34,976 bases of DNA from Hydrogenophaga sp. (GTDB lineage Bacteria > Pseudomonadota > Gammaproteobacteria > Burkholderiales > Burkholderiaceae_C). Under the pieces are notes generated by a model, which worked only from the letters and a program-made list of their open reading frames with translations, was not told the DNA's origin and made no database searches. Positions 4,644-34,976 of this stretch are shown here, one piece after another. Every line of letters begins with the position of its first letter. Within the stretch, counting starts at the first letter, position 1. The translations under genes and the position numbers were made by a program. The stretch covers positions 1 through 34,976 of the forward strand of contig JAGKSX010000048.1 in the NCBI GenBank assembly GCA_018993155.1, given 5' to 3'.

Positions 4644-4645
4644 AC

Positions 4646-5845: not shown

Positions 5846-5875
5846 GCCGACGACCCTCCCACGTCCGAGAGATCC

Positions 5876-6739: not shown

Positions 6740-6762
6740 ACGCCGACACGGAGAACATCCCC

Positions 6763-10393: not shown

Positions 10394-10414
10394 GAGCAAG
10401 CAAGGAAAGAACCC

Positions 10415-11458: not shown

Positions 11459-11480
11459 CCCCAACTCCGAAGCCCTCCTC

Positions 11481-13649: not shown

Positions 13650-13691
13650 GCGCCACCCTGCACGACACCCCTTTCACATTTCGAGAATCAC

Positions 13692-14264
13692 ATGGAACTC
13701 AACGGCGAACGCACCATTCAGGCGTCGGTGGACACCACCTGGAAAGCACTGAATGACCCCGCAGTGCTCAAGCAATGCATCCCTGGCTGCGAATCGCTGG
13801 AACGCACGGCCGATGACACCTTCACCGCCGCGCTGGCGCTGAAGATCGGCCCCGTCAATGCCAAATTCAAAGGGCTGGTGCGCCTGAGCGACCTGAACCC
13901 GCCGCACAGCTACACGCTGAGTTTCGAGGGCCAGGGCGGCATGGCCGGCTTCGGCAAGGGCACGGCGGCTGTGACGCTCACCGCCGAAGGCGCGTCCCAG
14001 ACGCGCCTGAACTACACCGCCAACGCCAAGGTCGGCGGCAAGATCGCCCAGGTGGGCTCGCGCCTCGTGGACGCCACCGCCGCCAAGATGGCCGAGGACT
14101 TCTTCAAGGCTTTCGAAGCCGCCGTAGAAACGCCCGTGCCCGCCGCCAGCGAAGTCGCGGTGGCCTCCGCCGCGCCCACCGAAACGCCCGCCGCCCGCCG
14201 CCCCTGGCTGTGGGGCGTGGTCGCCACCGCCGCGCTGGTGGCGCTGTACCTGGCCCTGGCCTGA
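13692..14264 (+). CDS. CoxG-like SRPBCC protein with C-terminal membrane anchor
   Basis: A 190-residue protein of the CO dehydrogenase subunit G family. Residues 1-145 form an SRPBCC (START-like) domain beginning [20 protein letters not shown], with ECIPGCE-like CIPGCESLE. An Ala/Pro-rich linker follows, then a single C-terminal hydrophobic helix ([17 protein letters not shown]). CoxG of carboxydotrophs tethers the Mo enzyme to the membrane. The protein here most likely does the same for the hydroxylase encoded upstream, giving it access to the respiratory chain. ATG 13692 lies 42 nt after the CoA-transferase. Confidence 0.9.
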
Positions 14265-14281
14265 ACACGGAGGACTGCCCC

Positions 14282-15031
14282 ATGAAGGTCATCGTCCCCG
14301 TCAAACGCGTGGTGGACTACAACGTCAAGGTTCGCGTCAAGAGCGACGGTACTGGCGTGGACATCGCCAACGTCAAGATGAGCATGAACCCGTTTGACGA
14401 GATCGCGGTGGAAGAAGCCGTGCGCCTGAAGGAGAAGGGCGTGGTCACCGAGGTGATCGCTGTCTCCTGCGGTGTGGCGCAATGCCAGGAGACCCTGCGC
14501 ACGGCCATGGCCATCGGCGCGGACCGCGCCATCCTGGTGGAGACCAGCGAAGAACTGCAGCCCCTGGCCGTGGCCAAGCTGCTCAAGGCGCTGGTGGACA
14601 AGGAACAACCGCAACTGATCATCCTGGGCAAGCAGGCGATCGACGACGACTGCAACCAGACCGGCCAGATGCTGGCCGCGCTGGCCGGCCTGCCGCAGGC
14701 GACCTTCGCCTCCAAGGTCGACGTGGCCGATGGCAAAGCCAGCGTGACGCGCGAAGTGGACGGCGGCCTGGAGACGCTGTCGATCGCGCTGCCGGCCGTC
14801 ATCACGACCGACCTGCGCCTGAACGAGCCGCGTTACGTCACGCTGCCCAACATCATGAAGGCCAAGAAGAAGCCGCTGGAGACGGTCAAGCCCGAAGACC
14901 TGGGTGTGGACGTGAAGCCGCGCATCAAGACCCTCAAGGTCAGCGAGCCGCCCAGGCGCGGTGCCGGGGTGAAGGTGCCCGACGTAGCCGCCCTGGTGGA
15001 CAAACTCAAGAACGAAGCGAAGGTGATCTGA
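14282..15031 (+). CDS. etfB: Electron transfer flavoprotein beta subunit
   Basis: A 249-residue ETF beta subunit. The start [20 protein letters not shown], the AMP-site region [18 protein letters not shown] and the docking segment [19 protein letters not shown] are standard for the family. ATG 14282 has GGAGGA upstream; the in-frame extension from 14210 lies inside the CoxG-like gene. ETF takes electrons from acyl-CoA dehydrogenases and hands them to ETF:quinone oxidoreductase. Its place at the end of the pyridine operon fits a dedicated partner for the two divergent acyl-CoA dehydrogenases. It could also be a housekeeping copy recruited to the locus. Confidence 0.96.
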
Positions 15032-15976
15032 ATGCCGGTCCTGGTCATTGCCGAACACGACAACGCCGCCCTCAAGGGCGCGACCCTCAACACCGTGACC
15101 GCCGCCGCCCAGTGCGGGGGTGATGTGCACGTCCTCGTGGCTGGCCACAACGCCGCCGCTGCCGCCCAGGCCGCTGCGCAGATCGCTGGCGTGGCCAAGG
15201 TGATCCATGCCGACGCCCCGGGCTTCGAGCACGGCCTGGCCGAGAACGTCGCCGCGCAGGTGCTCGCTCTCGTCAACAATGCGGCCGCCGACTACAGCCA
15301 CATCCTCTTCCCCGCCACCGCCAGCGGCAAGAACGTCGCCCCGCGCGTGGCCGCCACGCTGGACGTGGGCCAGGTCTCCGACATCACCAAGGTCATCAGC
15401 GCCGACACCTTCGAGCGCCCGATCTACGCCGGCAACGCGATCGCCACCGTGCAGAGCACGGATGCCAAGCATGTGATCACCGTGCGCACCACCGGCTTCG
15501 ACCCGGCGGCGGCCACCGGCGGCAGCGCCGCCGTGGAAACCGCCACGGCCGCGGCCGATGACGGCAAGAGCAAGTTCCTGGGCAGCGAGATCGCCAAGAG
15601 CGACCGCCCCGAACTCACCGCCGCGAAGATCATCGTCTCGGGTGGCCGCGCGCTGGGCTCCGCCGAGAAGTTCAACGAGGTGATGACACCGCTGGCCGAC
15701 AAGCTCGGCGCCGCCCTGGGCGCCAGCCGTGCCGCCGTGGACGCGGGTTACGCGCCCAACGACTGGCAGGTGGGCCAGACCGGCAAGATCGTCGCACCTC
15801 AGCTCTACATCGCCGCCGGCATCTCGGGCGCGATCCAGCATCTGGCCGGCATGAAGGACAGCAAGGTCATCGTGGCGATCAACAAGGACCCCGAGGCCCC
15901 GATCTTCTCGGTGGCCGACTACGGCCTGGAGGCCGATCTGTTCACCGCCGTGCCCGAACTCGCTGCAGCGGTGTAG
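15032..15976 (+). CDS. etfA: Electron transfer flavoprotein alpha subunit
   Basis: A 314-residue ETF alpha subunit, starting directly after the etfB stop. The C-terminal FAD domain shows [31 protein letters not shown] and [12 protein letters not shown], the recognised FAD-binding signature. The N-terminal domain is Ala-rich, as is normal. It is the last gene of the rightward operon: the next gene is convergent and ends 17 nt away, leaving no room for a separate terminator of ordinary size. Confidence 0.96.
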
Positions 15977-20954: not shown

Positions 20955-21698
20955 TCAGCCCGTCGGGGATGTCTTACGGCCAAGGAACACTTCGAGCCCA
21001 CTGAGAAAAATTTCGACATGGGCATCGAAGCTGCTGTTGAGCGGCACGTCGGTGCCGTTCTGCCAGCGCAGGATGAAAGCGCGGTTGGCCAGCAAGGGCA
21101 GGTAGCGCACCAGCGTGGGATTGGCCAGCGGGTCGATGGAGCGCACCCGGCCTTCCAGCGCAGTGGCCCAGCCCTCGGGATCGTCGGTGGGCAGGGGCGC
21201 CAGTTCCATCGTCATGAAGCCCATCATCGCGGAGATGACGCAGTTGTAGGCCTCGCGCAGGTTGGCCTCGGTGGCGCCCGCTTCCAGCAGGGCCTGGATC
21301 ACGCCTTCGATCAGGTCGGTGCTCAAGGCGCCGTTGGAGGCCAGCTGAGCACCGATCAACTGCGCCACGTTGGGGTGCTTGCGCACGGACTTGCGGTAGC
21401 GGTTGAACAGCTTGCGCATCCAGGCGCGCCAGTCGCCTTCGCCGCGCGGCGGCACCACACCGGCCATCACCAGGTTCGACACCTCGGCCAGCAGCGCGTC
21501 CTTCGACGCCAGGTGCCAGTAGATGGTGCTGGGGTACACGTCCAGCGACCGCGCCACGTCCCGCATGCTGAACGCATGGATGCCCACCCGGTCGATCTGG
21601 GCAAGCGCCACCTCGACGATGAGCTCGCGCGTGATGGTGCTGTTGGTGGGCCTTCCCGCCGTCTTGCGGGCGGGCTTGGAGGAAGCTGAGGGGGGCAT
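20955..21698 (-). CDS. TetR-family transcriptional regulator
   Basis: A 247-residue TetR-type repressor. The N-terminal DNA-binding domain is ITRELIVEVALAQIDRVGIHAFSMRDVARSLDVYPSTIYWHLASKDALL, shown here in parts: helix-turn-helix MRDVARSLDVYPSTIYWH. The larger C-terminal domain would bind the inducer. I start at ATG 21698 (MPPSASSKPARK); ATG 21758 is a real alternative because GGAAGGG lies just upstream of it, though the added residues look uninformative. The gene is divergent from the ABC transporter operon and probably controls it, with candidate operators at 21885-21911. Confidence 0.92.
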   Translation of the reverse strand: MPPSASSKPARKTAGRPTNSTITRELIVEVALAQIDRVGIHAFSMRDVARSLDVYPSTIYWHLASKDALLAEVSNLVMAGVVPPRGEGDWRAWMRKLFNRYRKSVRKHPNVAQLIGAQLASNGALSTDLIEGVIQALLEAGATEANLREAYNCVISAMMGFMTMELAPLPTDDPEGWATALEGRVRSIDPLANPTLVRYLPLLANRAFILRWQNGTDVPLNSSFDAHVEIFLSGLEVFLGRKTSPTG

Positions 21699-21884
21699 GG
21701 CGTCGGGTCGGGCGTTGAGGAGGCCGGGCCGATGGTACACGCTCCACCCCCGCGCCATGCACCCTTCCCGAGCGCTCCAACGGCCCGTTTGGTGCGTTGC
21801 GCGCACCGTTGTCGGGCAAGGGCCCCAGACCGCCGCCTAGGGTTATCCCTCTCCTGCCGCCATGCTCCATTCGACAAAATCTAA

Positions 21885-21911
21885 TTATCCAGTGAACAAT
21901 AAAGTAATTGT
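21885..21911. promoter_or_regulatory. Candidate TetR operator in the divergent promoter region
   Basis: Two overlapping imperfect dyads lie in the AT-rich part of the 279-bp gap between tetR and the transporter operon. One is TTATCCAGTGAACAATAA (21885-21902) with TTAT/ATAA arms. The other is ACAATAAAGTAATTGT (21896-21911) with perfect ACAAT/ATTGT arms. A possible rightward promoter, TCGACA (21871-21876) and AACAAT (21895-21900), would be covered by the first dyad. All calls are by eye. Confidence 0.45.
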
Positions 21912-21977
21912 CCTGCGTGGCATATTGCTTGCTTGAAGCTGAACGTACCCACTCAACGTGTCCACCAAGGAATGCCC

Positions 21978-23555
21978 ATGCCCTTCACGCGCCGCTTCAT
22001 GTTCGCCTCCACCCTGGGGGCTGCCCTCGTCCTCGCGGCGTCGTCCGCCCTGGCGCAGGGCAGCACGTTCCGCCTCGTGCCTTCATCCGATCTGAAGGTG
22101 CTGGACCCGGTCTGGACCACGGCAGTGGTCACCCGCAACCACGGCTACATGATTTACGACACGCTCTTCGGCACCGACGCCAAAGGGCGCATCCAGCCGC
22201 AGATGGTCGAGTCCCACACCGTGAGCAGCGATGGCAAGAGCTGGACGTTCAAGCTGCGCGCCGGCCTGGCCTTCCACGACGGCCAGCCGGTGACGGCCGA
22301 GGACGTGCTCGCCTCGCTGGCGCGCTGGGCCAAGCGCGACCCCATGGGCCAGCGCATGTACGCCGTGCTGGACAAGGCCGAAGCGGTGTCAGCCAGCAGC
22401 TTCCGCCTGGTGTTCACCGAGCCGTATGGCGTGGTGCTCGAATCCCTGGGCAAGCCCTCGTCCCTGGTGCCCTTCATCATGCCCAGGCGCATCGCCGACA
22501 CGCCGGCCGACAAGCAGATCGCCGAGCACATCGGCTCGGGCCCGTACGTCTTCAAGGCCGACGAGTTCCGCCCGGGCGAGCGTGCCGTCTACCTGAAGAA
22601 CGACAAGTACGTGCCGCGCACCGAAGCCCCCTCGGGCACCACCGGTGGCAAGACGGTGAAGGTCGATCGCGTGGAGTGGGTGGTGCTCAAGGACGCGCAG
22701 ACGCAGGTCAATGCCCTGGTCAACGGCGAGGTCGACATGCTTGAGTCCGTGCCCTTCGAGCACTACAACGCCCTGAAGGCGAACAACCGCATCACCACCG
22801 CGGCCGCGGCCGGCGGGCAGTACCTGCTGCGCTTCAACCACCTGGTGCCGCCGTTCAACGACGTGCGGGTGCGCCAGGCCGCCATGCTGTCCATGAACCA
22901 GGACGCGCTGCTGCGCACGCAGGTCGGCATTCCCGAGCTGTACAAGACCTGCATGTCGGTCTACCCCTGCGGCTCGCCATTGGCCTCGACCAAGAGCCTG
23001 GGCTTCACCGACAAGCCGCAGTTCGCCAAGGCGCGTGAACTGCTGAAGGCCGCAGGCTACAAGGGCCAGCCGGTGGTGCTGCTGCACGCCACCGACAACA
23101 GCCTGCTGGCCAAGCTGCCGCCGGTGGTGGCGCAGCTGCTGCGCCAGGGCGGCTTCACCGTCGACATGAAATCGATGGACTGGGGTTCCGTGGTGGCGCG
23201 CCGCGCCAAGAAGGAGCCGGCGAGCCAGGGCGGCTGGGACGCCTTCGTGACCTACTGGGGCACGGAGGACGCGCTGAACCCGATCAACTACGCCCCGCTG
23301 TCGGCCAACGGCGAAGCCGGCTGGTTCGGCTGGGCCAGCGACGAGCGCCTGGAGCAGCTCCGCTCCACCTACGCGCGCGCCACCACCGAAGCGCAGCGCA
23401 AGCAACTGGCCGACGACATCCAGGTTCGCGCCTACGAGATCGGCGCCTTCGCCCCCATGGGCGAGCTGCTGCGCCCGGTGGCCTTCCGCAAAGGCGTGGT
23501 CAGCGGCGTGCTCGTCGGGGCGACCAACGTCTACTGGAACATCAGCAAGCCCTGA
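21978..23555 (+). CDS. ABC transporter substrate-binding protein, family 5 (oligopeptide type)
   Basis: A 525-residue periplasmic binding protein of SBP family 5, which binds peptides, opines or similar compounds. It has a signal peptide ending SSALAQG, then LKVLDPVWTTAVVTRNHGYMIYDTLF, the usual first domain, and the later GSGPYVFK and NHLVPPFNDVRVRQAAMLS segments. ATG 21978 is chosen over ATG 21972 because AAGGA at 21967-21971 is 6 nt from 21978 but touches 21972. It is the first gene of an operon with both permeases and a double ATPase. Specificity cannot be read from sequence; downstream genes suggest an amide-linked beta-amino compound. Confidence 0.95.
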   Translation: MPFTRRFMFASTLGAALVLAASSALAQGSTFRLVPSSDLKVLDPVWTTAVVTRNHGYMIYDTLFGTDAKGRIQPQMVESHTVSSDGKSWTFKLRAGLAFHDGQPVTAEDVLASLARWAKRDPMGQRMYAVLDKAEAVSASSFRLVFTEPYGVVLESLGKPSSLVPFIMPRRIADTPADKQIAEHIGSGPYVFKADEFRPGERAVYLKNDKYVPRTEAPSGTTGGKTVKVDRVEWVVLKDAQTQVNALVNGEVDMLESVPFEHYNALKANNRITTAAAAGGQYLLRFNHLVPPFNDVRVRQAAMLSMNQDALLRTQVGIPELYKTCMSVYPCGSPLASTKSLGFTDKPQFAKARELLKAAGYKGQPVVLLHATDNSLLAKLPPVVAQLLRQGGFTVDMKSMDWGSVVARRAKKEPASQGGWDAFVTYWGTEDALNPINYAPLSANGEAGWFGWASDERLEQLRSTYARATTEAQRKQLADDIQVRAYEIGAFAPMGELLRPVAFRKGVVSGVLVGATNVYWNISKP

Positions 23556-23576
23556 CGCACAGCCGCTGCACACGCC

Positions 23577-24518
23577 ATGGTCACCTTCATCGCCCGCCGG
23601 CTGCTTTCGACGCTGCCGGTCCTGATCTTCGTCGCGGTCTTCGTGTTCCTGATCCTGCGCATGACGCCCGGCGACCCCGCGGCGCTCATCGTGGGCGACA
23701 TGGGCACCGAGGCCGACCTCGCCCGCGTGCGCCAGAGCCTGGGGCTGGACGGTTCGCTGCCCTCGCAGTTCCTGATCTGGATCGGGGAGCTGCTGCGCGG
23801 CGACCTGGGCGAGTCCTACTACTTCAAGACCAGCGTGGCCACGCTGATCGCGCAGCGCCTGGAGCCCACGCTCTCGCTGGCCGCGCTCACCATCGTGCTG
23901 GCCGTGCTGATCGCCGTGCCGCTGGGCGTGCTCGCGGCGGCGCGGCACGGCGGCTGGCTCGATCGCATGCTGATGGGCTTCTCGGTGCTGGGCTTTTCGG
24001 TGCCGGTGTTCGTCATCGGCTACGCGCTGATCTGGCTGTTCGCCCTCAAGCTGGGCTGGCTGCCGGTGCAGGGCTATGCGCGCCTCTCTTCGGGCGTGGG
24101 CCCCTGGCTCGCGAACCTGGTGCTGCCCGCCATCACGCTCTCGCTGGTCTACACCGCATTGATCGCGCGGGTCACGCGCGCGGCGGTGTCCGAGGCCTTG
24201 ACCGAAGACCACATCCGCACCGCGCGGGCCAAGGGCCTGGCCGAGCGCGCCGTCCTCATGCGGCACGCACTGGCCAACGCCGCCGTGCCCATCGTCACCG
24301 TGATCGGCATCGGCATCGCGCTGCTGATCGGTGGCGTGGTGGTCACCGAAACCGTGTTCGCCATCCCCGGCCTGGGCCAGCTCACCGTGGACGCGGTGCT
24401 CTCGCGCGACTTCCCTGTCATCCAGGGCGTGATCCTGCTGTTTTCGGTGGTCTACGTGCTCATCAACCTGCTGATCGACCTGAGCTACGTGCTGCTGGAT
24501 CCGCGCATCCGCTACTGA
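23577..24518 (+). CDS. ABC transporter permease, DppB type
   Basis: A 313-residue inner-membrane permease of the oligopeptide/dipeptide family. It begins MVTFIARRLLSTLPVLIFVAVFVF, the classic first helix of DppB/OppB proteins, and includes RMTPGDPA, the large periplasmic loop and the ATPase-coupling EAA segment near RTARAKGLAERAVLMRHALANA. About six membrane helices are visible. It pairs with the next gene to form the transmembrane channel. The spacing of 21 nt after the binding protein and 13 nt before the second permease indicates one transcript. Confidence 0.96.
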   Translation: MVTFIARRLLSTLPVLIFVAVFVFLILRMTPGDPAALIVGDMGTEADLARVRQSLGLDGSLPSQFLIWIGELLRGDLGESYYFKTSVATLIAQRLEPTLSLAALTIVLAVLIAVPLGVLAAARHGGWLDRMLMGFSVLGFSVPVFVIGYALIWLFALKLGWLPVQGYARLSSGVGPWLANLVLPAITLSLVYTALIARVTRAAVSEALTEDHIRTARAKGLAERAVLMRHALANAAVPIVTVIGIGIALLIGGVVVTETVFAIPGLGQLTVDAVLSRDFPVIQGVILLFSVVYVLINLLIDLSYVLLDPRIRY

Positions 24519-24531
24519 CCGACCTGCCCGA

Positions 24532-25482
24532 ATGACGACCATGACCTCCGATCCCCGCGACCTGCCCTCCGTGGCCCCCGAAGAAGCCACGCCGGCTCGC
24601 CAACGGCCTTCCACCTGGCAACTGGTGCGCGCCAACGGCGCGGTGCGCGTCGGCGCCTGCGCATTGGCCTTGCTGACTTTCGTGGCCGTGGCCGCGCCCT
24701 GGCTGGGCACGGTGGACCCGTCGGCCATCGACCCGGCCAGCATCAACATCGCGCCCGGCACGCGCGCGCCCTTCACCGACCTGGCCGGCGACGCCAAGGA
24801 CCACCTCTTCCTGCTCGGGGCCGACGGCTTCGGGCGCGACACCTGGAGCCGCATCGCCTATGGCGCGCGCGTCTCGCTGCTGGTGGGCGTGGCGGTGGCC
24901 GTGCTCGCCATGCTGGGCGGCGGCCTGATCGGCCTGGCGGCCGGCTACTTCCGCCGCCTCGACGGCGTGCTGATGCGCCTCATGGACGGCTTCATGGCGA
25001 TCCCCAACATCCTGCTGGCCATCGCGCTGGTCTCGATGTGGCGCGCCAGCCTGCTGACCATCGTGGTGGCCATCGCCATCCCCGAGATCCCGCGCGTGGC
25101 GCGGCTGCTGCGCTCCATCGTGCTCTCGGTGCGCGAGGAACCGTACGTGGAAGCCGCCGCCGCGCTGAACACGCCGACCTGGAAGATTCTCTGGCGCCAC
25201 GTCCTGCCCAACGCCGTGGCCCCGCTGATCGTGCACGCCACCTACGTCTGCGGCTCGGCCATGCTGGTCGAGGCGATCCTCTCCTTCCTCGGCATCGGCC
25301 TTTCGCCCGAAATCCCGACCTGGGGAAACATCATGTCCGAGGGCCGCGTCAACTTCAACGAACACCCCGAGAACGTGCTGTTCCCGGGTGCTTTCCTGGC
25401 GCTGACCGTGCTGGCCGTGAACATCCTGGGGGATGGCCTGCGCGACACGCTGGACCCCAAACTGCGCCGCCGCGGAGCCTGA
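24532..25482 (+). CDS. ABC transporter permease, DppC type
   Basis: A 316-residue DppC/OppC-type permease. An N-terminal cytoplasmic stretch of about 40 residues precedes the first helix (VGACALALLTFVAVAAPWL). FLLGADGFGRDTWSRIAYGARVSL is the hallmark of DppC proteins (LLGTDxxGRD), and the EAA loop is EEPYVEAAAALNTPTWKILW followed by HVLPNAVAPLIV. The start at ATG 24532 could instead be ATG 24541. Its stop lies 2 nt before the ATPase gene. Confidence 0.96.
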   Translation: MTTMTSDPRDLPSVAPEEATPARQRPSTWQLVRANGAVRVGACALALLTFVAVAAPWLGTVDPSAIDPASINIAPGTRAPFTDLAGDAKDHLFLLGADGFGRDTWSRIAYGARVSLLVGVAVAVLAMLGGGLIGLAAGYFRRLDGVLMRLMDGFMAIPNILLAIALVSMWRASLLTIVVAIAIPEIPRVARLLRSIVLSVREEPYVEAAAALNTPTWKILWRHVLPNAVAPLIVHATYVCGSAMLVEAILSFLGIGLSPEIPTWGNIMSEGRVNFNEHPENVLFPGAFLALTVLAVNILGDGLRDTLDPKLRRRGA

Positions 25483-25484
25483 CC

Positions 25485-27118
<1,634 letters not shown>

Positions 27119-27122
<4 letters not shown>

Positions 27123-28630
27123 GCGCGCTCCGCACCACGGCCCCCCAAGTGCTGGTGGCCCGGCTCAGCCACGAAAGCCACGCCTTCAGCCGGCTGCGCA
27201 CCACGCTGGCCGAGTTCGGCCGCGAGGAGCTGCTGTTCGGCGACGAGATCGTCGAGCGCATGCGCGGCACGCGCACCGAGCTGGGCGGCATCATCGACGC
27301 CGCGCAGGCGCAGGGTTGGCAGCTCGTGCCCACGGTCAGCGCCTGCGCCTCCACCGCCGGGCCCGTCACGCGCGCGGCCTACGACGCGCTCACCGAGCCC
27401 ATGCTGCGAGCGCTGGCCGAGCACCCTCACGTGGCGGCCGTGGTGCTGTCGCTGCATGGCGCGATGTTCGTCGAAGGCCTGCCCGACCCCGAGGGCGATC
27501 TGCTGTGCCGCATCCGCCAGCAGGTCGGCCCGCGCGTGGTGGTCGCGGCCACGCTGGACCTGCACGCCAACGTCACCGACGCCATGGTGCGCTACGCCGA
27601 CATCCTCACCAGCTACCGCACCACGCCGCACGTGGACCAGTACGAGGCCGGCCAGCGGGCCTGCGCACTGGTGCGGCGCGCCCTGGCCGGCGAGATCCGC
27701 CCGCGCGTGCACCTCGCGCGGCGCGACATGATCGCCGGCATGGACCTGGGCCGCACGCTGCGCGAGGGCCCCATGACGCGCCTGCACGCCCGCGCGCGGG
27801 CCTGGGAGCAGCGCGAGGCGGCCGTGCTCGATGTGAGCCTGAACGCGGGCTACTACATGGGCGACGTCTACGAAGCCGGCCCCTCGGTGCTGGTGGTCGG
27901 CGACGGCGACGCCGCGCTGTGCCAGCGCGTGGCGGACGAGCTGATCGACGACGCCTACCGCTGGCGCGACCAGAAGACCGTGCACCTGCAAAGCGTGGAC
28001 GAGGCGCTGGCGCGCTGCCGCGAACCCGCTCAGGGCCGCGGCCCGCTGATCCTGGCCGACTACACCGACGGCCCGGGCGGCGGCGGCTACGGCGACGCCA
28101 CCGCCCTGCTGCAGGCCCTGCTGGCCGCCAACCTGCCGGGCACGCTGGTGGGCCTGCTCCACGACCCCGAGAGCGCGCGCCAGGCGATCGAAGCCGGCGT
28201 GGGCCAGGCGCTGGACCTGCGCATCGGCGGCAAGACCGACCCGGCCTTCGGCGGCGGGCCTGTGGCCGTGCGCGCCCGGGTGCTCGCGGTGTCCGACGGC
28301 CGCTTCGTGCGCAGCGGCCCCTTCAAGACCGGCACACCGGCCTCCATCGGCGCCAGCGCCCTGCTGCAATGCGGCGAGGTGCAGGTGATCGTCGCCAGCA
28401 ACCGCGTGCAGGCCGAGGAGCGCGGCCAGTACCGCGTGCTCGGCGTGGACGTCGAGCGGCTCAACGTGCTCGCCCTCAAGGGCATCAACCACTTCCGCGC
28501 CGACCTCGAACCCATCGCGCGCGGCATCGTGTTCGTGGAATCGGGCGGCATCCACGCCACCGACCTGCGCACCCTGCCTTACCGCAACGTGCGGCGCCCC
28601 CTCTGGCCGCTGGACGACACCGCCGGCTGA
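27119..28630 (+). CDS. M81-family metallopeptidase (MlrC / microcystinase C family)
   Basis: A 503-residue zinc hydrolase of peptidase family M81. Candidate metal and catalytic residues are Glu54 (RTELGG), His113 (SLHGAM), Asp147 and His149 (LDLHAN) and His171 (TTPHVDQYEAG). From His113 onward their spacing equals that predicted for MlrC of Sphingomonas (His150, Asp184, His186, His208). The C-terminal domain contains DYTDGPGGGGYGDAT, typical of the family. MlrC releases the beta-amino acid Adda from linear microcystin peptides. The enzyme here is coupled to the ABC ATPase gene and followed by a beta-aminotransferase, so an amide of a beta-amino acid is a plausible substrate. A leader peptide is absent, so it should be cytoplasmic. 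Confidence 0.92.
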
Positions 28631-28656
28631 TTTCCCCTGTTTTCCCTGACCATCAC

Positions 28657-29949
28657 ATGAACCTCGACACCGAACTGAGCCAGCTGCGCGACGCCTATGT
28701 GGCGCGCCACCCCCAGAGCCAAAGCCGCTACCAGGCCGCCACCGCCGTCATGCCCGGCGGCAACACCCGCTCGGTGCTCTACTACGATCCTTTTCCGCTG
28801 GCCATGGCCCGCGGCGAGGGCGCCCGCCTCTGGGACGCGGATGGCCATGAGTACCTCGATTTCCTGGGCGAGTTCACGGCCGGCCTGTACGGCCACAGCC
28901 ACCCGGTGATCCGCGAAGCCATCCAGGCCGCCTTGGACGGTGGCATCAACCTCACCGGCCACAACCTGCTCGAAGCGCAGCTGGCCCAACTCGTGACCAG
29001 CCGCTTCCCCTCGGTGCAGCGACTGCGCTTCACCAACTCCGGCACCGAGGCCAACCTGCTGGCGATTGCGGCCGCCAAGCGCTTCACCGGCCGCCAGAAG
29101 ATCCTCGTGTTCAAGGGCGGCTACCACGGTGGCGTGCTCACCTTCGCCGCCGGCCACTCGCCGATCAATGTGCCGCACGACTTCGTGCTCGGCACCTACA
29201 ACGACCAGGCCGGTGCCGCCGCGCTCGTGGCCGAGCACGCGAAGGACCTGGCCGCCATCCTGGTCGAGCCCATGCAGGGCGCCGGCGGCTGCATCGTCGG
29301 GCGCCCCGGGTTCCTGGCCGACCTGCGCCGCCTCGCCACCGAGACCGGCGCGCTGCTGGTGTTCGACGAGGTGATGACCTCGCGCCTGACGCCGGGCGGG
29401 CGCCAGGCCGCCCTGGGCATCGCGCCCGACATGACCACGCTGGGCAAGTACATCGGCGGCGGCATGTCCTTCGGCGCCTTCGGTGGCCGCGAGGACGTGA
29501 TGGCGCTGTTCGACCCGCGCGTGCCGGGCCACCTGGGCCACGCCGGCACCTTCAACAACAACGTGATGACCATGTCGGCCGGCATCGCGGGCCTGAGCCG
29601 GATCTACACGCCCGAGGTGGCGGTGGCCTTCAACGCGCGCGGCGACGCGCTGCGCGAGCGCCTGAACGCGACCGCCCGCTCGCGCGGCACGCGCCTGCAG
29701 TTCACCGGCCTGGGCACGCTCATGAACCTGCACGCCACGCCGGGCGAGATCCGCCACTGCGACGACATTCCCGCGACCGAGCACACCGTCAAGGACCTGT
29801 TCTTCTTCCACATGCTGGCCCACGGCTTCTACGTGGCGCGGCGCGGCTTCATCGTGCTCTCGCTGCCACTGACGGACGACGACCTCGACCGCTTCCACGG
29901 CGCCTTCGAGGCCTTCGTGGACCGCTACGGCCAGGGCCTGCAGCCATGA
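28657..29949 (+). CDS. Class III beta-amino-acid aminotransferase (VpAT-like)
   Basis: A 430-residue PLP enzyme of the glutamate-1-semialdehyde aminomutase-like class III group. It has NSGTEANL, GGYHGGVL, Asp237 (VFDEVM) and the PLP lysine Lys264 (TLGKYIGGGMSFGAFGG). Long stretches match what I recall of the Variovorax paradoxus beta-phenylalanine aminotransferase, including GGINLTGHNLLE, HAGTFNNNVMTM and VLSLPLTD. Arg38 (NTRSVLYY) corresponds to the carboxylate-binding Arg41 of that enzyme, and Arg396 (RRGFIVLS) to a second active-site arginine region. It is therefore likely to turn a beta-amino acid into a beta-keto acid. It overlaps the next gene by 4 nt (ATGA). Confidence 0.92.
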   Translation: MNLDTELSQLRDAYVARHPQSQSRYQAATAVMPGGNTRSVLYYDPFPLAMARGEGARLWDADGHEYLDFLGEFTAGLYGHSHPVIREAIQAALDGGINLTGHNLLEAQLAQLVTSRFPSVQRLRFTNSGTEANLLAIAAAKRFTGRQKILVFKGGYHGGVLTFAAGHSPINVPHDFVLGTYNDQAGAAALVAEHAKDLAAILVEPMQGAGGCIVGRPGFLADLRRLATETGALLVFDEVMTSRLTPGGRQAALGIAPDMTTLGKYIGGGMSFGAFGGREDVMALFDPRVPGHLGHAGTFNNNVMTMSAGIAGLSRIYTPEVAVAFNARGDALRERLNATARSRGTRLQFTGLGTLMNLHATPGEIRHCDDIPATEHTVKDLFFFHMLAHGFYVARRGFIVLSLPLTDDDLDRFHGAFEAFVDRYGQGLQP

Positions 29950-31058
29950 GCGCCGCGCAGGGCCGCTCCCAAGCAAGCTCGCACCGCAGCCCGCAGGGCG
30001 AAGGTACTCCAGTGAGCGCCACCGAGCCGCGCCAAGGCCGCGTGCAGACCGTGCTCGGCCTGGTGGACCCTGCCGTGCTGGGGCCCACGCTCATGCACGA
30101 GCACGTCTTCATCGACCTCACGCCGCCGCCGCTGCGCCTGAACCCGCCGGCCGAGCAGGAAGCGGACATCGATCTGTGCAACTGCTGGGGCATCGCCTAC
30201 GGCCAGAAGCCGTTCATGCGCAACTACCGGCTGGACGAGACCGACGTGGCCGTGGCCGAGCTGCGCGACATGAAGGCCGCCGGCGGCGCCTCGCTGGTGG
30301 ACCTCACGGTGGGCGGCCTCAACCCCCAGCCCGATCGGCTGGTGGAGGTGGCGAAGGCCACCGGCGTGCACATCGTCATGGGCTGCGGCCACTACGTGAA
30401 CGACTACCAGCACCCGGCCAACCACACGCGAACGGCCGACGACTTCGCGCGCGAGATGGTGGAGCAGCTCACCGTGGGCGCCTGGGGCACGGCCGTGCGG
30501 GCCGGCATCATCGGCGAGATCGGCTGCCAGGCCCCCTGGACGGATCTGGAGCGGCGCGTCATGCACGGCGCGCTCACCGCGATGCAGGCCACCGGGGCCG
30601 CGCTCAACGTGCACCCGGGGCGCGATGCCGACCAGCCCATGGAGGTGGTGGACTTCATCCGCGCGCGCGGCCTGCCGGTGGACCGCGTGGTCATCAGCCA
30701 CATCGACCGCACGATCTTCGACGACGACCGGCTGCTGCGCCTGGCCGACACCGGCTGCGTGATCGAGTTCGACCTGTTCGGCTGGGAGCAGACCGCCTAC
30801 CCGGCGGCCGACATCGACATGCCCAACGACGGCGCGCGGCTGCGCATGGTCAAGCTGCTGGTCGACCGGGGCCACCGCGATCAGGTGCTGATCAGCCACG
30901 ACATCTGCACCCGCACCCGGCTGGGCCGCTACGGCGGCCACGGCTACCAGCACATCTTCGCCAACATCGCGCCGCGCATGCTGCGCCGCGGGTTCACGCA
31001 GGCCGACGTGGACACCATTCTGGTGAAGACCCCGCGCCGCCTGCTGACGTTGATCTGA
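29946..31058 (+). CDS. Phosphotriesterase-family metal-dependent hydrolase
   Basis: A 370-residue TIM-barrel amidohydrolase of the phosphotriesterase family. Predicted binuclear metal ligands are His51 and His53 (LMHEHVF), Glu191 (IIGEIG), His223 (NVHPG), His252 (ISHIDR) and Asp319 (ISHDIC). Glu replaces the carbamylated lysine of true phosphotriesterase, as in the PHP-like and some lactonase members, so lactone, amide or ester substrates are more likely than phosphotriesters. Residues 1-22 (Ser/Gln/Gly-rich) are not family-like. GTG 30012, with GAAGG 7 nt upstream, is an alternative start, but ATG 29946 couples neatly to the preceding stop. It may open a lactam or cut an amide before transamination. 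Confidence 0.88.
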   Translation: MSAAQGRSQASSHRSPQGEGTPVSATEPRQGRVQTVLGLVDPAVLGPTLMHEHVFIDLTPPPLRLNPPAEQEADIDLCNCWGIAYGQKPFMRNYRLDETDVAVAELRDMKAAGGASLVDLTVGGLNPQPDRLVEVAKATGVHIVMGCGHYVNDYQHPANHTRTADDFAREMVEQLTVGAWGTAVRAGIIGEIGCQAPWTDLERRVMHGALTAMQATGAALNVHPGRDADQPMEVVDFIRARGLPVDRVVISHIDRTIFDDDRLLRLADTGCVIEFDLFGWEQTAYPAADIDMPNDGARLRMVKLLVDRGHRDQVLISHDICTRTRLGRYGGHGYQHIFANIAPRMLRRGFTQADVDTILVKTPRRLLTLI

Positions 31059-31248
31059 GTCCCGCGCACCGGCAGGCCCTTTCCTTTCCCCCATCGACAG
31101 AGCGCTGCGCGCGCGCCCTTCCGGGTGCACGCGCCAGGGCTTCTGTTGCCCGAAAACGGCCGCAAGGCCACCCAAGGCCCGGAGCACCCGCTCCGGAATC
31201 GCAACCGGCGCCGCGCAGGCGCCACCACTGGCAAATGGAGCAAGCACT
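31059..31248 (+). promoter_or_regulatory. Porin upstream region with two GC-rich hairpins
   Basis: This 190-bp gap is the longest inside the rightward operon. It contains CCGGAGC (31179-31185) and GCTCCGG (31190-31196) around a 4-nt loop, and two GGCGCC blocks (31207-31212 and 31218-31223) around a 5-nt loop. Neither has a T-tract, so they are not ordinary intrinsic terminators. They would fold in the leader just before the ribosome binding site GGAG (31237-31240) of the porin gene. No clear promoter was seen. Confidence 0.4.
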
Positions 31249-32364
31249 GTGAAACACTCGAAACTCATTGGTCTGGCCTGCCTCGGCATGGCCGCGCTGA
31301 GCCCGCTCGGCGCCTTCGCGCAAACGGCCCCCGCGCCCACGTCCAGCGTCAACCTCTATGGCGTGCTGGACATTGGCCTGACCCGTGTCAGCAACGTGGG
31401 CGGCAGCGGGATCACCCGCGTGGACGACGGCGTGTCCCAGGGCAGCCGCATCGGCTTTCGCGGGCGCGAAGACCTCGGTGGTGGTCTGGCCGCGATCTTC
31501 AACCTGGAGATGGGCGTGGCGACCGACAACGGCACGCTGCGCCAGGGCGGCCTGGCGTTCGGCCGCGCGGCCTTCGTCGGCCTGGCCGACCAGAAGCTGG
31601 GCCAGTTCACGGTGGGCCGCCAGTTCGACCAGATGGTCGGCACCCTGCTGCGCTACCACCCGGGCTTCCACACCGGCATCTACGGCATGACGCCGGGCGA
31701 CGCCGACCGCGTGGCCGGGGCCTGGCTGGACAACCAGATCACCTACGTGAGCCCCGACCTGGCCGGCTTCAAGTTCACCGTGCAGCGCGCGCTCTCCGAA
31801 GGCGGCACCAGCGCGACCAACGCGGGCAACGCCTGGAGCGCCGGTGCGACCTACGGCAACGGCCCGTTCAACCTGGGCGTGGCCACCACCAGCATCCAGG
31901 GCCACACCGTGCGCCCGGGCAGCAGCTACGGCGTGTCGCAGTTCCTCGGCACCACCCTGGCCACACCCGCCACCGCCTTCGTGCTGCCCGAGTACCAGAC
32001 CGCCGGCATCGGCGCCTCCTACGCCTTCGGACCGGCCACCGTCGCGGCCCTGACCACGCGCTCGAAGTTCGAGCTGGCCAACGGCGCCTCGGACGCGATG
32101 AAGACGGTCGGCCTCTCGCTGTCGTACAAGCTGGGCGAGCTGATCCTGTCCTCGGGCGTGCAGCGCGCCAAGCTGGCGTCTTCCGCCTGGACCACCGTGA
32201 CGCTGGGCGCCGACTACTACCTCTCCAGGCGCACTGACGTGTACGTGACCTACAACGCGCGCAAGGCCTCGGGCCCGAACACGCGCGCGGTGCTGGTGAC
32301 CAACGGCCCGTCGTCCGACGACAGCCAGAACGCGCTGCGCGTGGGCATCCGCCACCGCTTCTGA
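31249..32364 (+). CDS. Gram-negative outer-membrane porin (Burkholderiales type)
   Basis: A 371-residue outer-membrane porin. A 24-residue signal peptide ends GAFAQ, and the mature protein begins SSVNLYGVLDIGLTRVSN, followed by SRIGFRGREDLGGGLAAIFNLEMG, the signature start of Burkholderiales trimeric porins. The C-terminus LRVGIRHRF ends in Phe, the usual barrel-assembly signal. The start is GTG at 31249 with GGAG 8 nt upstream. Lying between a hydrolase and a CoA ligase in a catabolic operon, it probably lets the growth substrate across the outer membrane. Confidence 0.95.
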   Translation: MKHSKLIGLACLGMAALSPLGAFAQTAPAPTSSVNLYGVLDIGLTRVSNVGGSGITRVDDGVSQGSRIGFRGREDLGGGLAAIFNLEMGVATDNGTLRQGGLAFGRAAFVGLADQKLGQFTVGRQFDQMVGTLLRYHPGFHTGIYGMTPGDADRVAGAWLDNQITYVSPDLAGFKFTVQRALSEGGTSATNAGNAWSAGATYGNGPFNLGVATTSIQGHTVRPGSSYGVSQFLGTTLATPATAFVLPEYQTAGIGASYAFGPATVAALTTRSKFELANGASDAMKTVGLSLSYKLGELILSSGVQRAKLASSAWTTVTLGADYYLSRRTDVYVTYNARKASGPNTRAVLVTNGPSSDDSQNALRVGIRHRF

Positions 32365-32366
32365 CC

Positions 32367-34376
32367 ATGACGACCACCACCGCTTCGAACGCCCACCCCT
32401 TGCCGGACGGCGCGGGCGAGCTGCTCTGGTCGCCCACCGCCGAGCAGGTGCGGTCCAGCCGCCTGGCCCACTACCAGGCCTGGCTGGGCGAACACAAGGG
32501 CGTGCGCACCACGTCCTACGACGAGCTCTGGCGCTGGTCCACCGACGACCTCGACGGCTTCTGGCAATCCATCTGGGAACACTTCGAAGTGGTGGCCGAG
32601 GGCAGCCCGCAACCCGTGCTGGGCGAGCGGCGGATGCCCCATGCGCAGTGGTTTCCGAATGCGCGCCTGAACTACGCCGAGCACATCTTCCGCAACGCCA
32701 CCGCCGAGCGCCCCGCCATCCTCGCGCACGCCGAAGACGAACCCCTGCTGAGCATCTCGTGGGCCTCGCTGGAGCGCGACACCGCCGCGCTCGCCGCCAC
32801 CCTGCGCTCGCTCGGCGTCGGCCCCGGCGACCGCGTGGCCAGCTACATGCCGAACCGGCCCGAGACGGTGATCGCCTTCCTGGCCTGCGCGAGCGTGGGC
32901 GCCATCTGGTCCAGCTGCGCACCCGACATGGGGCCTACCGTGGTGCTGGACCGGCTGCGCCAGATCGAACCCAAGGTGCTGTTCGCCACCGACAGCGACC
33001 GCTACAACGGCAAGGCGCACGACCGCGCGCCCCAGGTCGAGAGCCTGCTCGCCGAACTGCCCAGCGTGCGGCACGTGGTGCACGTGCACGGACCGGCGCA
33101 CACCACCCGCGCCGTGGGCTGGCGCGACCGCCTGGACTGGTCCGAGTGCATCCAGCACGCGGCGCCGCCGCGCTACGAGCGCGTGCCCTTCGCGCACCCG
33201 CTCTGGATCGTGTATTCCTCCGGCACCACCGGCCTGCCCAAGGCCATGGTGCACAGCCACGGCGGCATCGTGCTCACGCACCTCAAGACCATGGCCCTGC
33301 AGCACGACCTGCGCGCGGGCGACCGGTTGCTGTTCCTGGGCAGCACGGGCTGGATCGTCTGGAACTGGCAGGTCGGCGCGCTGCTCACGGGCGCCTCCAT
33401 CGTGCTCTACGACGGCAACCCCAGCTGGCCGGACACCCAGGCGCTCTGGCGCTTCCTCGACGAACAGGGCATCACCCTGTTCGGCTGCGGCGCGGCCTTC
33501 CTCATCAATGCCATGAAGGACGGCCTTCGGCCGCGCGACGTCTGTTCGCTCCAGCACCTGCGCGCCATCAACGCCACCGGTTCGCCCCTGCCCATCGACG
33601 CCTACCGCTGGGTCTACAGCGCCGTCAAACCCGACGTCTGGCTGGCCTCGATCAGCGGCGGCACCGACATCGCGGCCGGCTTCGTGGCCTGCGCGCCCTC
33701 GCTGCCGGTGCACGCGGGCGAGATCCAGTGCCCCGAACTGGGCGTGGCCGCCCAGGCCTACAACGACGCGGGCCAGCCGGTGGTCAACGAGGTGGGCGAG
33801 CTGGTCATCACCCAGCCCATGCCCTCCATGCCGGTCTTCTTCTGGAACGACCCGGACGGCCGGCGCTACCGGGAAAGCTACTTCGACACCTTCCCCGGCG
33901 TCTGGCGCCACGGCGACTGGATCCGCTTCACCGAGCGCCGCACCTCGGTGATCTATGGCCGCTCCGACAGCACCATCAACCGCTTCGGCATCCGCATGGG
34001 CACGGCCGAGATCTACCGGGTGGTGGAGGCGCTGCCCGAGGTGCGCGACAGCATGGTGGTGGACCTGGAGTACCTCGGCCGGCCCTCCTTCATGCCCCTG
34101 TTCGTGGTGCTGCAACCGGGCCTGTCGCTGGACGAGGCGCTCAAGGCGCGCATCGTCGAGCAGATCCGGACGAAAGCCTCCTCGCGGCACGTGCCCAACG
34201 AGGTGCTCCAGGTGACCGACATCCCGCGCACACTGAGCGGCAAGAAGATGGAGGTGCCGGTGCGCAAGCTGCTGCTCGGCGCGCCACCCGACCAGGTGGC
34301 CAGCCCCGATGCCATGCAGAACCCGGGCAGCTTCGGCTTCTTCGTCGACTACGCGAAAAAGAGGGTGCCCACTTGA
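32367..34376 (+). CDS. Acetoacetyl-CoA synthetase-like beta-ketoacyl-CoA ligase
   Basis: A 669-residue ANL-superfamily ligase of the acetoacetate-CoA ligase group. Motifs in order: WFPNARLNYAEHIFR near the N-terminus, the P-loop YSSGTTGLPKAMVHSHGG (about 282-299), GSTGWIVWNW, the hinge region YGRSDSTINRFGIRMGTAEIY, and the C-terminal SGKKMEVPVRK holding the adenylation lysine. It uses ATP to join CoA to acetoacetate or a similar beta-keto acid. This fits as the step after the VpAT-like aminotransferase, whose products are beta-keto acids. ATG 32367 lies 2 nt after the porin stop. Short-chain carboxylates are an alternative substrate. Confidence 0.93.
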   Translation: MTTTTASNAHPLPDGAGELLWSPTAEQVRSSRLAHYQAWLGEHKGVRTTSYDELWRWSTDDLDGFWQSIWEHFEVVAEGSPQPVLGERRMPHAQWFPNARLNYAEHIFRNATAERPAILAHAEDEPLLSISWASLERDTAALAATLRSLGVGPGDRVASYMPNRPETVIAFLACASVGAIWSSCAPDMGPTVVLDRLRQIEPKVLFATDSDRYNGKAHDRAPQVESLLAELPSVRHVVHVHGPAHTTRAVGWRDRLDWSECIQHAAPPRYERVPFAHPLWIVYSSGTTGLPKAMVHSHGGIVLTHLKTMALQHDLRAGDRLLFLGSTGWIVWNWQVGALLTGASIVLYDGNPSWPDTQALWRFLDEQGITLFGCGAAFLINAMKDGLRPRDVCSLQHLRAINATGSPLPIDAYRWVYSAVKPDVWLASISGGTDIAAGFVACAPSLPVHAGEIQCPELGVAAQAYNDAGQPVVNEVGELVITQPMPSMPVFFWNDPDGRRYRESYFDTFPGVWRHGDWIRFTERRTSVIYGRSDSTINRFGIRMGTAEIYRVVEALPEVRDSMVVDLEYLGRPSFMPLFVVLQPGLSLDEALKARIVEQIRTKASSRHVPNEVLQVTDIPRTLSGKKMEVPVRKLLLGAPPDQVASPDAMQNPGSFGFFVDYAKKRVPT

Positions 34377-34386
34377 ACCGCGCGAC

Positions 34387-34976
34387 CTAGACCGCCAGAC
34401 GGGCCTCGGCAGGTGTGCAGGTGGTGAGCGCGCTGCCCACGCGGGCGCGGGCCTGCTCGATGAGGTAGTCCAGGAACACCTCGGTGCGGCGCGGCATGAA
34501 CTTGCGGCTGGGCAGGGCTGCGTACACCGTCAGCCGGTCCGTGATCCAGGGGTTGAGCACGCGCACCAGCTCGCCGCTCTCGATGAAGGGCGCGGCCAGG
34601 CCGATGGCGCAGGCACCGATGCCGGCGCCATCGAGCGCGGCGTGCATCAGCGTGTCGGGGTGGTTGACCCAGAGCACCGGTTGCACCTCGATGTCGACAA
34701 AGCGGGCTTCGTCCGTCTCGTGCAGCAGGCGCCAGCCCCGGGTGCGGCCGGTCGCGGGCTTGAAGCGCAGGCAGTCGTGCCGCTCCAGGTCTTCGGGCTG
34801 CACTGGCGTGCCCTTGCGCTGCAGGTATTTGGGCGAAGCCAGCAGCACGGTGACGCTGGAGAGCACCTTGCGCGCGATCACGTTGGCGTCGAACGAGGCC
34901 TGCGCGCCCATGAGCGTGATGTCGTAGTCCTGGATCGGGGGTTCGCGGGGGGAGTCCACGTCGATGTCGAGCAGGA
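34387..34976 (-). CDS. LysR-family regulator, partial (N-terminus beyond right edge)
   Basis: The C-terminal ~196 residues of a LysR-type regulator; the reading frame stays open to the last base of the window, so the helix-turn-helix is outside. The visible part is the substrate-binding domain: LLDIDVDSPREPPIQDYDI, LLASPKYLQRKGTP, LERHDCLRFKPATG and the late DGAGIGACAIGLAAPFIESGELVRVL, all typical. It is convergent with the ligase gene, 10 nt away. Its target is not evident in this window. Confidence 0.92.
   Translation of the reverse strand, partial: LLDIDVDSPREPPIQDYDITLMGAQASFDANVIARKVLSSVTVLLASPKYLQRKGTPVQPEDLERHDCLRFKPATGRTRGWRLLHETDEARFVDIEVQPVLWVNHPDTLMHAALDGAGIGACAIGLAAPFIESGELVRVLNPWITDRLTVYAALPSRKFMPRRTEVFLDYLIEQARARVGSALTTCTPAEARLAV

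What the first reader, a model, noticed from the sequence alone, without database searches (positions are those of the whole stretch)
21978..34376. Possible beta-amino-acid peptide/amide catabolic operon
Nine co-directional genes join an oligopeptide-type ABC transporter, an M81 (MlrC-family) metallopeptidase, a VpAT-like beta-amino-acid aminotransferase, a phosphotriesterase-family hydrolase, a porin and an acetoacetyl-CoA synthetase-like ligase. Most junctions overlap or are under 30 nt. Each step's product suits the next: amide hydrolysis frees a beta-amino acid, transamination gives a beta-keto acid, and AACS-type ligases activate beta-keto acids. MlrC itself releases the beta-amino acid Adda, and VpAT acts on beta-phenylalanine. 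I know of no described pathway with this exact set; the substrate is inferred.
Basis: partly seen in the sequence, partly recalled or inferred. Interest (0 to 1): 0.75.

Follow-up and report, generated by a model that had tools for sequence, protein, structure and literature searches.

The report
Operon for degrading β-amino-acid amides
A bacterium related to Variovorax carries a conserved set of neighbouring genes that looks built to import, cut and digest compounds containing β-amino acids, an unusual kind of amino acid that ordinary peptide-cutting enzymes handle poorly; the exact food molecule is not known.

Summary
The nine co-directional genes are real and where stated. The acetoacetyl-CoA synthetase (AACS) clusters with it in the window and, rearranged, in G1240, not in G1244. 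The aminotransferase carries the residues of β-phenylalanine transaminases (R41, E75, R398). The phosphotriesterase-family gene is nearest to PTER, which in mouse hydrolyses N-acetyl-β-alanine but not N-acetyl-α-alanine, so I assign the N-acyl cut to it. M81 takes the place an amidase holds in relatives, and in 9 of 21 Burkholderiales loci M81 sits between AptA and MMSDH (β-alanine type). Best reading: uptake of amide-linked β-amino acids, cleavage on both sides (M81, PTE), transamination to a β-keto acid, activation by AACS; related clusters use BKACE or CoA transferase instead. No activity was tested and the substrate is open. Against: most VpAT-like genes elsewhere lack these partners. The (capped) listings of my paper searches showed no description of this gene set.

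The parts
20955..21695 (-). TetR-family regulator, divergent from the operon (the ORF is open up to a GTG at 21806); probable regulator of the system
   Evidence: TetR_N 42.7 bits; orthologues at 39-55% in 9 of 146 loci, all 9 holding a VpAT-like aminotransferase; 88-89% in both congeners
21696..21977 (.). divergent intergenic/regulatory region; weak sigma-70-like match at 21871-21900
   Evidence: the promoter match is weak (1 found in 21600-34976, 0.4 expected)
21978..23555 (+). family 5 (oligopeptide-type) substrate-binding protein, with a signal-peptide-like N terminus
   Evidence: PF00496 229 bits; nearest solved chain 8vdx
23577..24518 (+). OppB/DppB-type permease
24532..25482 (+). OppC/DppC-type permease
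25485..27122 (+). fused OppD-OppF-type ABC ATPase
   Evidence: two ABC_tran stretches
27119..28630 (+). M81 (MlrC-related) metallohydrolase, proposed cut on the carboxyl side of the β-amino acid
   Evidence: PF07364/PF07171; Zn ligands E19, D147, H149, H171 kept, MlrC substrate-site residues not
28657..29949 (+). VpAT-like β-amino acid aminotransferase
   Evidence: best solved match 4ao9, 58.8% over 417 aligned residues; R41, V43, E75, K267, R398 kept, Y76F
29946..31058 (+). PTER-like phosphotriesterase-family amidohydrolase, proposed N-acyl-β-amino-acid hydrolase
   Evidence: best solved match 9efa, 279 bits; metal ligands and the R204/R233 pair kept, H300 replaced by C
31249..32364 (+). outer-membrane porin
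   Evidence: PF13609 156 bits for the stretch from 31288; 50% match in the P. graminis cluster
32367..34376 (+). acetoacetyl-CoA synthetase-type ligase
   Evidence: TIGR01217 815 bits; 4wd1 728 bits; one of three AACS-like copies in this genome
34387..34976 (-). partial LysR-family regulator, convergent; probably not part of the system
   Evidence: PF03466; no LysR match over 80 bits in the stretches of the two congeners

Best explanation
The operon takes up and degrades compounds in which a β-amino acid is held in amide bonds (N-acylated, peptide-linked or amidated). Porin and Opp-type ABC transporter import the intact compound (inferred). In the cytoplasm M81 cuts the amide on the carboxyl side of the β-amino acid and the PTER-like PTE-family enzyme removes an N-acyl group (both inferred from relatives and position). 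The VpAT-like enzyme transaminates the freed β-amino acid to a β-keto acid (residue signature shown, activity inferred). AACS converts the β-keto acid, or acetoacetate derived from it, to its CoA ester for thiolysis (inferred). The divergent TetR gene is the likely switch (inferred).
For: Core of eight genes plus TetR collinear in two congeners, dN/dS 0.10-0.42. AT signature: R41 in 53 of 53 and R398 in 54 of 54 readable VpAT-like sequences, S in 23 of 23 and 22 of 22 GSAM-like ones. PTE-anchored test: 8 of 11 distinct loci at 50% identity or more have a VpAT-like AT within 10 kb, 0 of 9 below 50%; 2 of the 3 exceptions have another class III aminotransferase. Mouse PTER acts on N-acetyl-β-alanine, not on N-acetyl-α-alanine or N-acetyl-GABA (PMC13311154, abstract and section 5). 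Order amidase-AT-PTE in L116, L123 and (with TetR between) L125, against M81-AT-PTE here. On plasmids 6 of 6 records with M81 above 44% have a VpAT-like AT within 5 kb, but these are two distinct loci; none of the other 46 M81 records is among the 33 AT records (compared by eye). AptA lies within 3 kb of M81 in 13 of 21 fetched order-level loci. MlrC frees the β-amino acid Adda (PMC4810221, passages). β-keto acid modules: BKACE in 7, SCOT in 5, AACS in 1 of 17 opened plasmid loci (17 of the 33 AT records, chosen by me); BKACE and AACS in one region in L138.
Against: No activity data. Of 27 VpAT-like loci from the capped genome scan, only one each has PTE, M81 (32%, 6 kb away) or AACS, and two BKACE; of 7 aminotransferase loci from the same family 1 has PTE. 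The full nine genes were seen only here and, with AACS moved, in G1240; in the 36 kb read around the G1244 operon no AACS was found. MlrC substrate-site residues and PTER H300 are not kept. [quoted passage not shown] BKACE was found only elsewhere in the genome, and no thiolase was annotated among the window genes scanned.
Confidence: 0.7

Rival explanations
1. A narrower system: the substrate is a short aliphatic β-amino acid (such as 3-aminobutyrate) or its acyl/peptide form, so transamination gives acetoacetate itself and AACS acts on its textbook substrate.
For: AACS scores far above the acetoacetate-CoA ligase cut-off; L134, L136 and L137 pair the aminotransferase with SCOT, a deacylase and thiolase, without a BKACE match; Y76, which binds the aromatic ring in VpAT (PMC9850050, passages), is F here.
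Against: F76 is common (16 of 53 readable VpAT-like sequences) and still aromatic; VboTA of this family converts both aromatic and aliphatic β-amino acids; BKACE in related clusters (7 of 17 opened plasmid loci) points to larger β-keto acids.
Confidence: 0.3
2. A general peptide/amide scavenging operon: M81 and PTE family act on ordinary amides or lactones and the aminotransferase is not devoted to β-amino acids.
For: Family 5 binding proteins and PTE-family enzymes are broad families (recalled); in the listings I saw no substrate described for M81 enzymes other than MlrC; PTER has side activity on other N-acetyl amino acids.
Against: The aminotransferase signature separates cleanly from GSAM; the PTE subfamily keeps the arginine pair that 3k2g lacks; M81 also partners the ω-aminotransferase AptA; BKACE/SCOT/thiolase in related clusters fit β-keto acids.
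Confidence: 0.15
3. Detoxification or use of one natural product or drug with a β-amino acid residue (an antibiotic, cyanobacterial peptide or β-amino-acid drug amide), horizontally acquired.
For: The PTE subfamily is rare in the samples: 1 of 399 genomes in the order, 4 of 398 in the phylum and 3 of 67 in the genus, the window's own counted; some related clusters lie on plasmids.
Against: Import, porin and CoA-activation genes point to use as food; none of the nine genes was named as an efflux pump or target-modification gene.
Confidence: 0.15

Closest known systems
β-phenylalanine aminotransferases VpAT (4ao9) and MesAT (2yku)
   Same: 58.8% and 53.9% identity over 417 and 414 aligned residues; R41, E75, K267, R398 kept
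   Different: Y76 is F; here the gene sits in an operon with hydrolases, transporter and AACS. In Paraburkholderia the β-keto acid was seen to decarboxylate to acetophenone (PMC6150868, abstract and passages)
PTER, N-acetyltaurine/N-acetyl-β-alanine hydrolase
   Same: Nearest solved relative (9efa, named phosphotriesterase-related protein); six metal ligands, R204, R233, Y128, Y263 kept
   Different: H300 replaced by C, T258 by W; bacterial and operon-encoded; activity untested
MlrC (7ylq) and the M81 family
   Same: Same Pfam domains and the four Zn ligands; MlrC frees the β-amino acid Adda
   Different: Distant (phmmer 179 bits); W59, F67, E70, F96 of the MlrC substrate site not kept; MlrC model 186 bits against cut-off 999
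AptA-M81-MMSDH clusters of Burkholderiales
   Same: M81 beside a β/ω-amino acid aminotransferase (13 of 21 fetched loci; full trio in 9)
   Different: Different aminotransferase; semialdehyde dehydrogenase instead of AACS; no PTE match
amidase-AT-PTE clusters (G947, G979, G1110; in other orders P. graminis, S. meliloti)
   Same: Homologous AT and PTE in all five, TetR in four, Opp transporter in two
   Different: Amidase-signature enzyme where the window has M81; no AACS match; BKACE in P. graminis
Acetoacetyl-CoA synthetase (4wd1, TIGR01217)
   Same: Full-length match above cut-off
   Different: One of three copies in this genome, the one tied to this operon

Membership tests
VpAT/MesAT β-amino acid aminotransferases | R41 (substrate carboxylate) with supporting E75 | tested here: met
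   roles of the residues from PMC9850050 passages
VpAT/MesAT β-amino acid aminotransferases | V43 and Y76 (aromatic ring) | tested here: inconclusive
   V43 met, Y76 is F
VpAT/MesAT β-amino acid aminotransferases | R398 and the PLP lysine K267 | tested here: met
   roles of R398 and K267 recalled
VpAT/MesAT β-amino acid aminotransferases | activity on β-amino acids | not testable with these tools
   needs enzyme assay
PTER | metal ligands H26, H28, E169, H201, H230, D298 | tested here: met
   list from PMC13311154 section 5
PTER | substrate residues R204, R233 | tested here: met
   3k2g has G and P there
PTER | substrate residue H300 (by docking in the paper) | tested here: not met
   C in the window; C in 19 of 20 relatives and A in one; hence filed as PTER-like, not as PTER
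MlrC (microcystinase) | Zn ligands E39, D167, H169, H191 | tested here: met
   ligands from PMC9982164 passages (that paper writes H191 and once H196)
MlrC (microcystinase) | substrate-site W59, F67, E70, F96 and NCBIfam cut-off | tested here: not met
   so M81 family member, not MlrC
M81 metallopeptidase family (Pfam) | PF07364 and PF07171 above gathering score | tested here: met
mlr microcystin cluster | mlrA, mlrB, mlrD beside mlrC | tested here: not met
   none among the nine annotated genes; mlrD recalled; the rest of the genome was not searched for them
Acetoacetate-CoA ligase | TIGR01217 cut-off | tested here: met
   815 against 520.9 bits

The most novel reading that the evidence does not exclude
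M81 and the PTER-like branch of the PTE family are bacteria's dedicated hydrolases for β-amino-acid amides, cutting on the carboxyl and the amino side respectively, and are shuffled between gene clusters with whichever β-amino acid aminotransferase (VpAT-like or AptA) and β-keto acid or semialdehyde module (AACS, SCOT, BKACE, MMSDH) fits. The window would then be a complete import-to-CoA pathway for β-peptide-type compounds, which most peptidases do not cut.
Probability: 0.35. Interest if true: 0.75.

Novelty: new variant of a known kind. Interest (0 to 1): 0.57.

Why it matters
β-amino acids occur in toxins, antibiotics and drugs, and β-peptides are not recognised by most peptidases (PMC3281772, passages), yet I saw little on how bacteria consume them. 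This operon puts candidate enzymes for every step in one place and gives a testable role to two groups: M81 enzymes other than MlrC, and bacterial PTER-like enzymes. The aminotransferase class is also of industrial use, so its natural partners matter.

Tried and rejected
LysR at the window end as regulator: convergent, cut off, and no LysR match over 80 bits in the congener stretches; TetR fits better. Microcystin degradation: MlrC substrate site not kept. Glutamate-1-semialdehyde aminomutase, the best NCBIfam name for the aminotransferase: below its cut-off and against the residue signature. Resiniferatoxin-binding-type PTE (3k2g): lacks the arginine pair. A first transfer of PTER numbering by a fixed offset was wrong because of insertions and was replaced by motif anchoring; Y65 could not be placed reliably. 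Structure prediction was not run because sequence matches were already clear. A TTGTAC-n3-GTACAA-like palindrome upstream of some TetR orthologues was not clear in the window. Paper searches for M81 with β-alanine and for β-amino acid clusters listed nothing on this gene set; one search listed 15 of 777 papers.

Full report
What is there. The window is the whole of contig C109 of a 4.9 Mb, 176-contig assembly. Nine + strand genes from 21978 to 34376 encode a family 5 solute-binding protein, two Opp/Dpp permeases, a fused ABC ATPase, an M81 enzyme, a class III aminotransferase, a PTE-family enzyme, a porin and an AACS. Seven of eight junctions overlap or are under 30 nt; the PTE-porin gap is about 190 nt. 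The N termini of the binding protein and the porin look like signal peptides and those of M81, AT and PTE do not (read by eye), so hydrolysis is probably cytoplasmic after import.

Outside the given coordinates. A divergent TetR gene lies at 20955-21695 on the minus strand (Pfam). Among 146 fetched loci, of which 54 hold a VpAT-like aminotransferase, its orthologues (39-55%) occur in 9, all of them among the 54. In L035, L118 and L125 it is divergent from, and next to, the aminotransferase gene. It is 88-89% identical in both congeners.

Conservation. In 67 genomes of the genus, 3 including the window's own carry the PTE gene at E 1e-60 or better. Both others, G1244 and G1240, have SBP-OppB-OppC-ABC-M81-AT-PTE-porin collinear at 76-95% protein identity, with dN/dS from 0.10 to 0.42 over 17 gene comparisons, AACS of G1240 included. 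In G1240 the AACS gene lies upstream of TetR, not after the porin. It is 78% identical to the window's copy, and both are 72-73% identical to the next AACS of the window's genome, so I take the two for orthologues. In G1244 no AACS match was seen in the 36 kb read around the operon; another AMP-dependent ligase stands beside TetR. The window's genome has three AACS-like genes in all at E 1e-60 or better.

Aminotransferase. Its best solved relatives are VpAT (4ao9) and MesAT (2yku), far above glutamate-1-semialdehyde aminomutase: 58.8% and 53.9% identity. R41, V43, E75, K267 and R398 of VpAT are kept and Y76 is F. Across loci, position 41 is R in 53 of 53 readable VpAT-like sequences and S in 23 of 23 GSAM-like ones; position 398 is R in 54 of 54 against S in 22 of 22 (L034 repeats L016 and L036 repeats L018, so 52 are distinct; 23 of the 53 GSAM-like loci passed the score limit for this alignment). 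PMC9850050 (passages) gives the roles of R41, V43, E75 and Y76 and says that VboTA of this family converts aromatic and aliphatic β-amino acids.

PTE-family enzyme. The best solved match is 9efa, named phosphotriesterase-related protein (279 bits), ahead of 3k2g (188 bits). By motif-anchored alignment, all six PTER metal ligands and R204, R233, Y128 and Y263 are kept, H300 is C and T258 is W; 3k2g lacks R204 and R233. Mouse PTER hydrolyses N-acetyl-β-alanine and N-acetyltaurine but not N-acetyl-α-alanine or N-acetyl-GABA (PMC13311154, abstract and section 5). Because H300 is not kept I do not file it as PTER.

PTE-anchored test. Taking PTE as query, and the aminotransferase as unknown, the searches gave 11 distinct loci at 50% identity or more besides the window: eight genomes and three plasmid loci (four S. 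meliloti records count as one). Eight of 11 have a VpAT-like gene within 10 kb. Of the other three, G1013 and Rhizobium NXC24 have another class III aminotransferase, and G1013 also a BKACE; G722 has no match to the window's aminotransferase, and the two neighbouring ORFs scanned are not aminotransferases. Of the nine loci below 50% that these searches returned, none has a VpAT-like match (two of them end with the contig close to the gene). The subfamily is rare in the samples: 1 of 399 genomes of the order and 4 of 398 of the phylum, own genome included.

M81. It belongs to the M81 Pfam families but scores 186 bits against a cut-off of 999 for MlrC. The Zn ligands E19, D147, H149 and H171 are kept in the window and in all 25 relatives aligned, whereas the MlrC substrate residues W59, F67, E70 and F96 are not kept in the window. 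The two rhizobial M81 proteins of clusters with a VpAT-like gene (L025, L026) share the window's H at MlrC N41; the other 23 relatives have N. Linked evidence: (a) in L116, L123 and L125 the order is amidase-AT-PTE, in L125 with TetR between amidase and AT, where the window has M81-AT-PTE, so M81 seems to stand for an amidase (L116 and L123 come from one family); L125 also has the Opp transporter with a fused ATPase at 56%. (b) On plasmids, all 6 records with M81 above 44% have a VpAT-like gene within 5 kb; these are two distinct loci, and none of the other 46 M81 records is among the 33 AT records (compared by eye; AT limit E 1e-90). (c) In the order, 13 of 21 fetched M81 loci (of 25 non-own places) have AptA within 3 kb, 9 of them as AptA-M81-MMSDH; the family names were tested on L148 and carried to the rest by 66-82% identity. 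L149 is cut off on the AptA side. (d) MlrC cleaves only the Adda-Glu bond of linearised microcystins and frees Adda, a β-amino acid (PMC4810221, passages). Together these suggest that M81 enzymes act on amides of β-amino acids, on the carboxyl side.

Fate of the β-keto acid. I opened 17 of the 33 plasmid records with a VpAT-like gene: BKACE occurs in 7 (27% identity in one, L031), SCOT in 5, thiolase in 5, amidase in 5, AACS in 1, PTE in 2, M81 in 2 (100 bits or more; L055 is counted there and also in the scan set). BKACE makes acetoacetate and an acyl-CoA from a β-keto acid and acetyl-CoA (recalled). L138 holds BKACE and AACS about 9 kb apart in one region, L037 AACS and thiolase. No BKACE was found in the window; the genome has two elsewhere. 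So AACS may act on the β-keto acid directly or on acetoacetate.

Results against. Of its 27 VpAT-like loci, 1 has PTE, 1 M81 (32%, 6 kb away), 1 AACS and 2 BKACE; its 53 GSAM-like loci, used as control, have none of these four. Many of the 27 are short contigs, which lowers the counts, and GSAM is a housekeeping gene, so the control is weak. Of 7 aminotransferase loci from the same family, 1 has PTE. A VpAT-like gene alone therefore does not predict the cluster; a close PTE does.

Literature. Searches (open-licence PubMed Central only) listed 6 of 6, 15 of 53, 15 of 20, 14 of 14, 12 of 13, 15 of 44, 15 of 777, 4 of 4 and 10 of 15 papers. In those titles and abstract openings I saw no description of this gene set, of an M81-AptA link or of a bacterial PTER-like role. 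I opened only the eight papers PMC11374699, PMC13311154, PMC6150868, PMC9850050, PMC9982164, PMC4810221 and PMC3281772 (passages), with the abstract and section 5 of PMC13311154; that makes seven in all. Novelty is stated for these listings alone.

Verdict. Enzyme activities, substrate and regulation are not shown.

Noticed in passing
window 3909-15973: A second catabolic block: isochorismatase, FAD monooxygenase, the three parts of a molybdenum hydroxylase, TctC, a family III CoA transferase, CoxG and ETF subunits; it resembles an N-heterocycle or aromatic degradation cluster.
   Followed up: no
L144, L146-L148, L151, L156, L158, L160, L163: AptA-M81-MMSDH three-gene clusters in Burkholderiales, suggesting that M81 supplies a β-amino acid such as β-alanine.
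   Followed up: partly
L024 1423-3844, L026 19199-21254, L136 13374-19110: Rhizobial plasmids carry a lysine-2,3-aminomutase-like gene and ATP-grasp-type ligase genes near the VpAT-like gene, as if β-amino acid compounds were both made and eaten there.
   Followed up: partly
upstream of TetR orthologues in L118, L125, L133, L116, L123: A palindrome like TTGTAC-n3-GTACAA, a possible TetR operator; not clear in the window.
   Followed up: partly
L032, L138, L140: A related rhizobial cluster: amidase, arginine-deiminase-like protein and amino acid ABC transporter (with a carbamoylase-type hydrolase seen in L138 and L140), divergent from AT-FCD regulator-BKACE.
   Followed up: partly
L168 4987-7873: In congener G1244 an AMP-dependent ligase and a DUF5938 protein lie beside TetR instead of AACS.
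   Followed up: no
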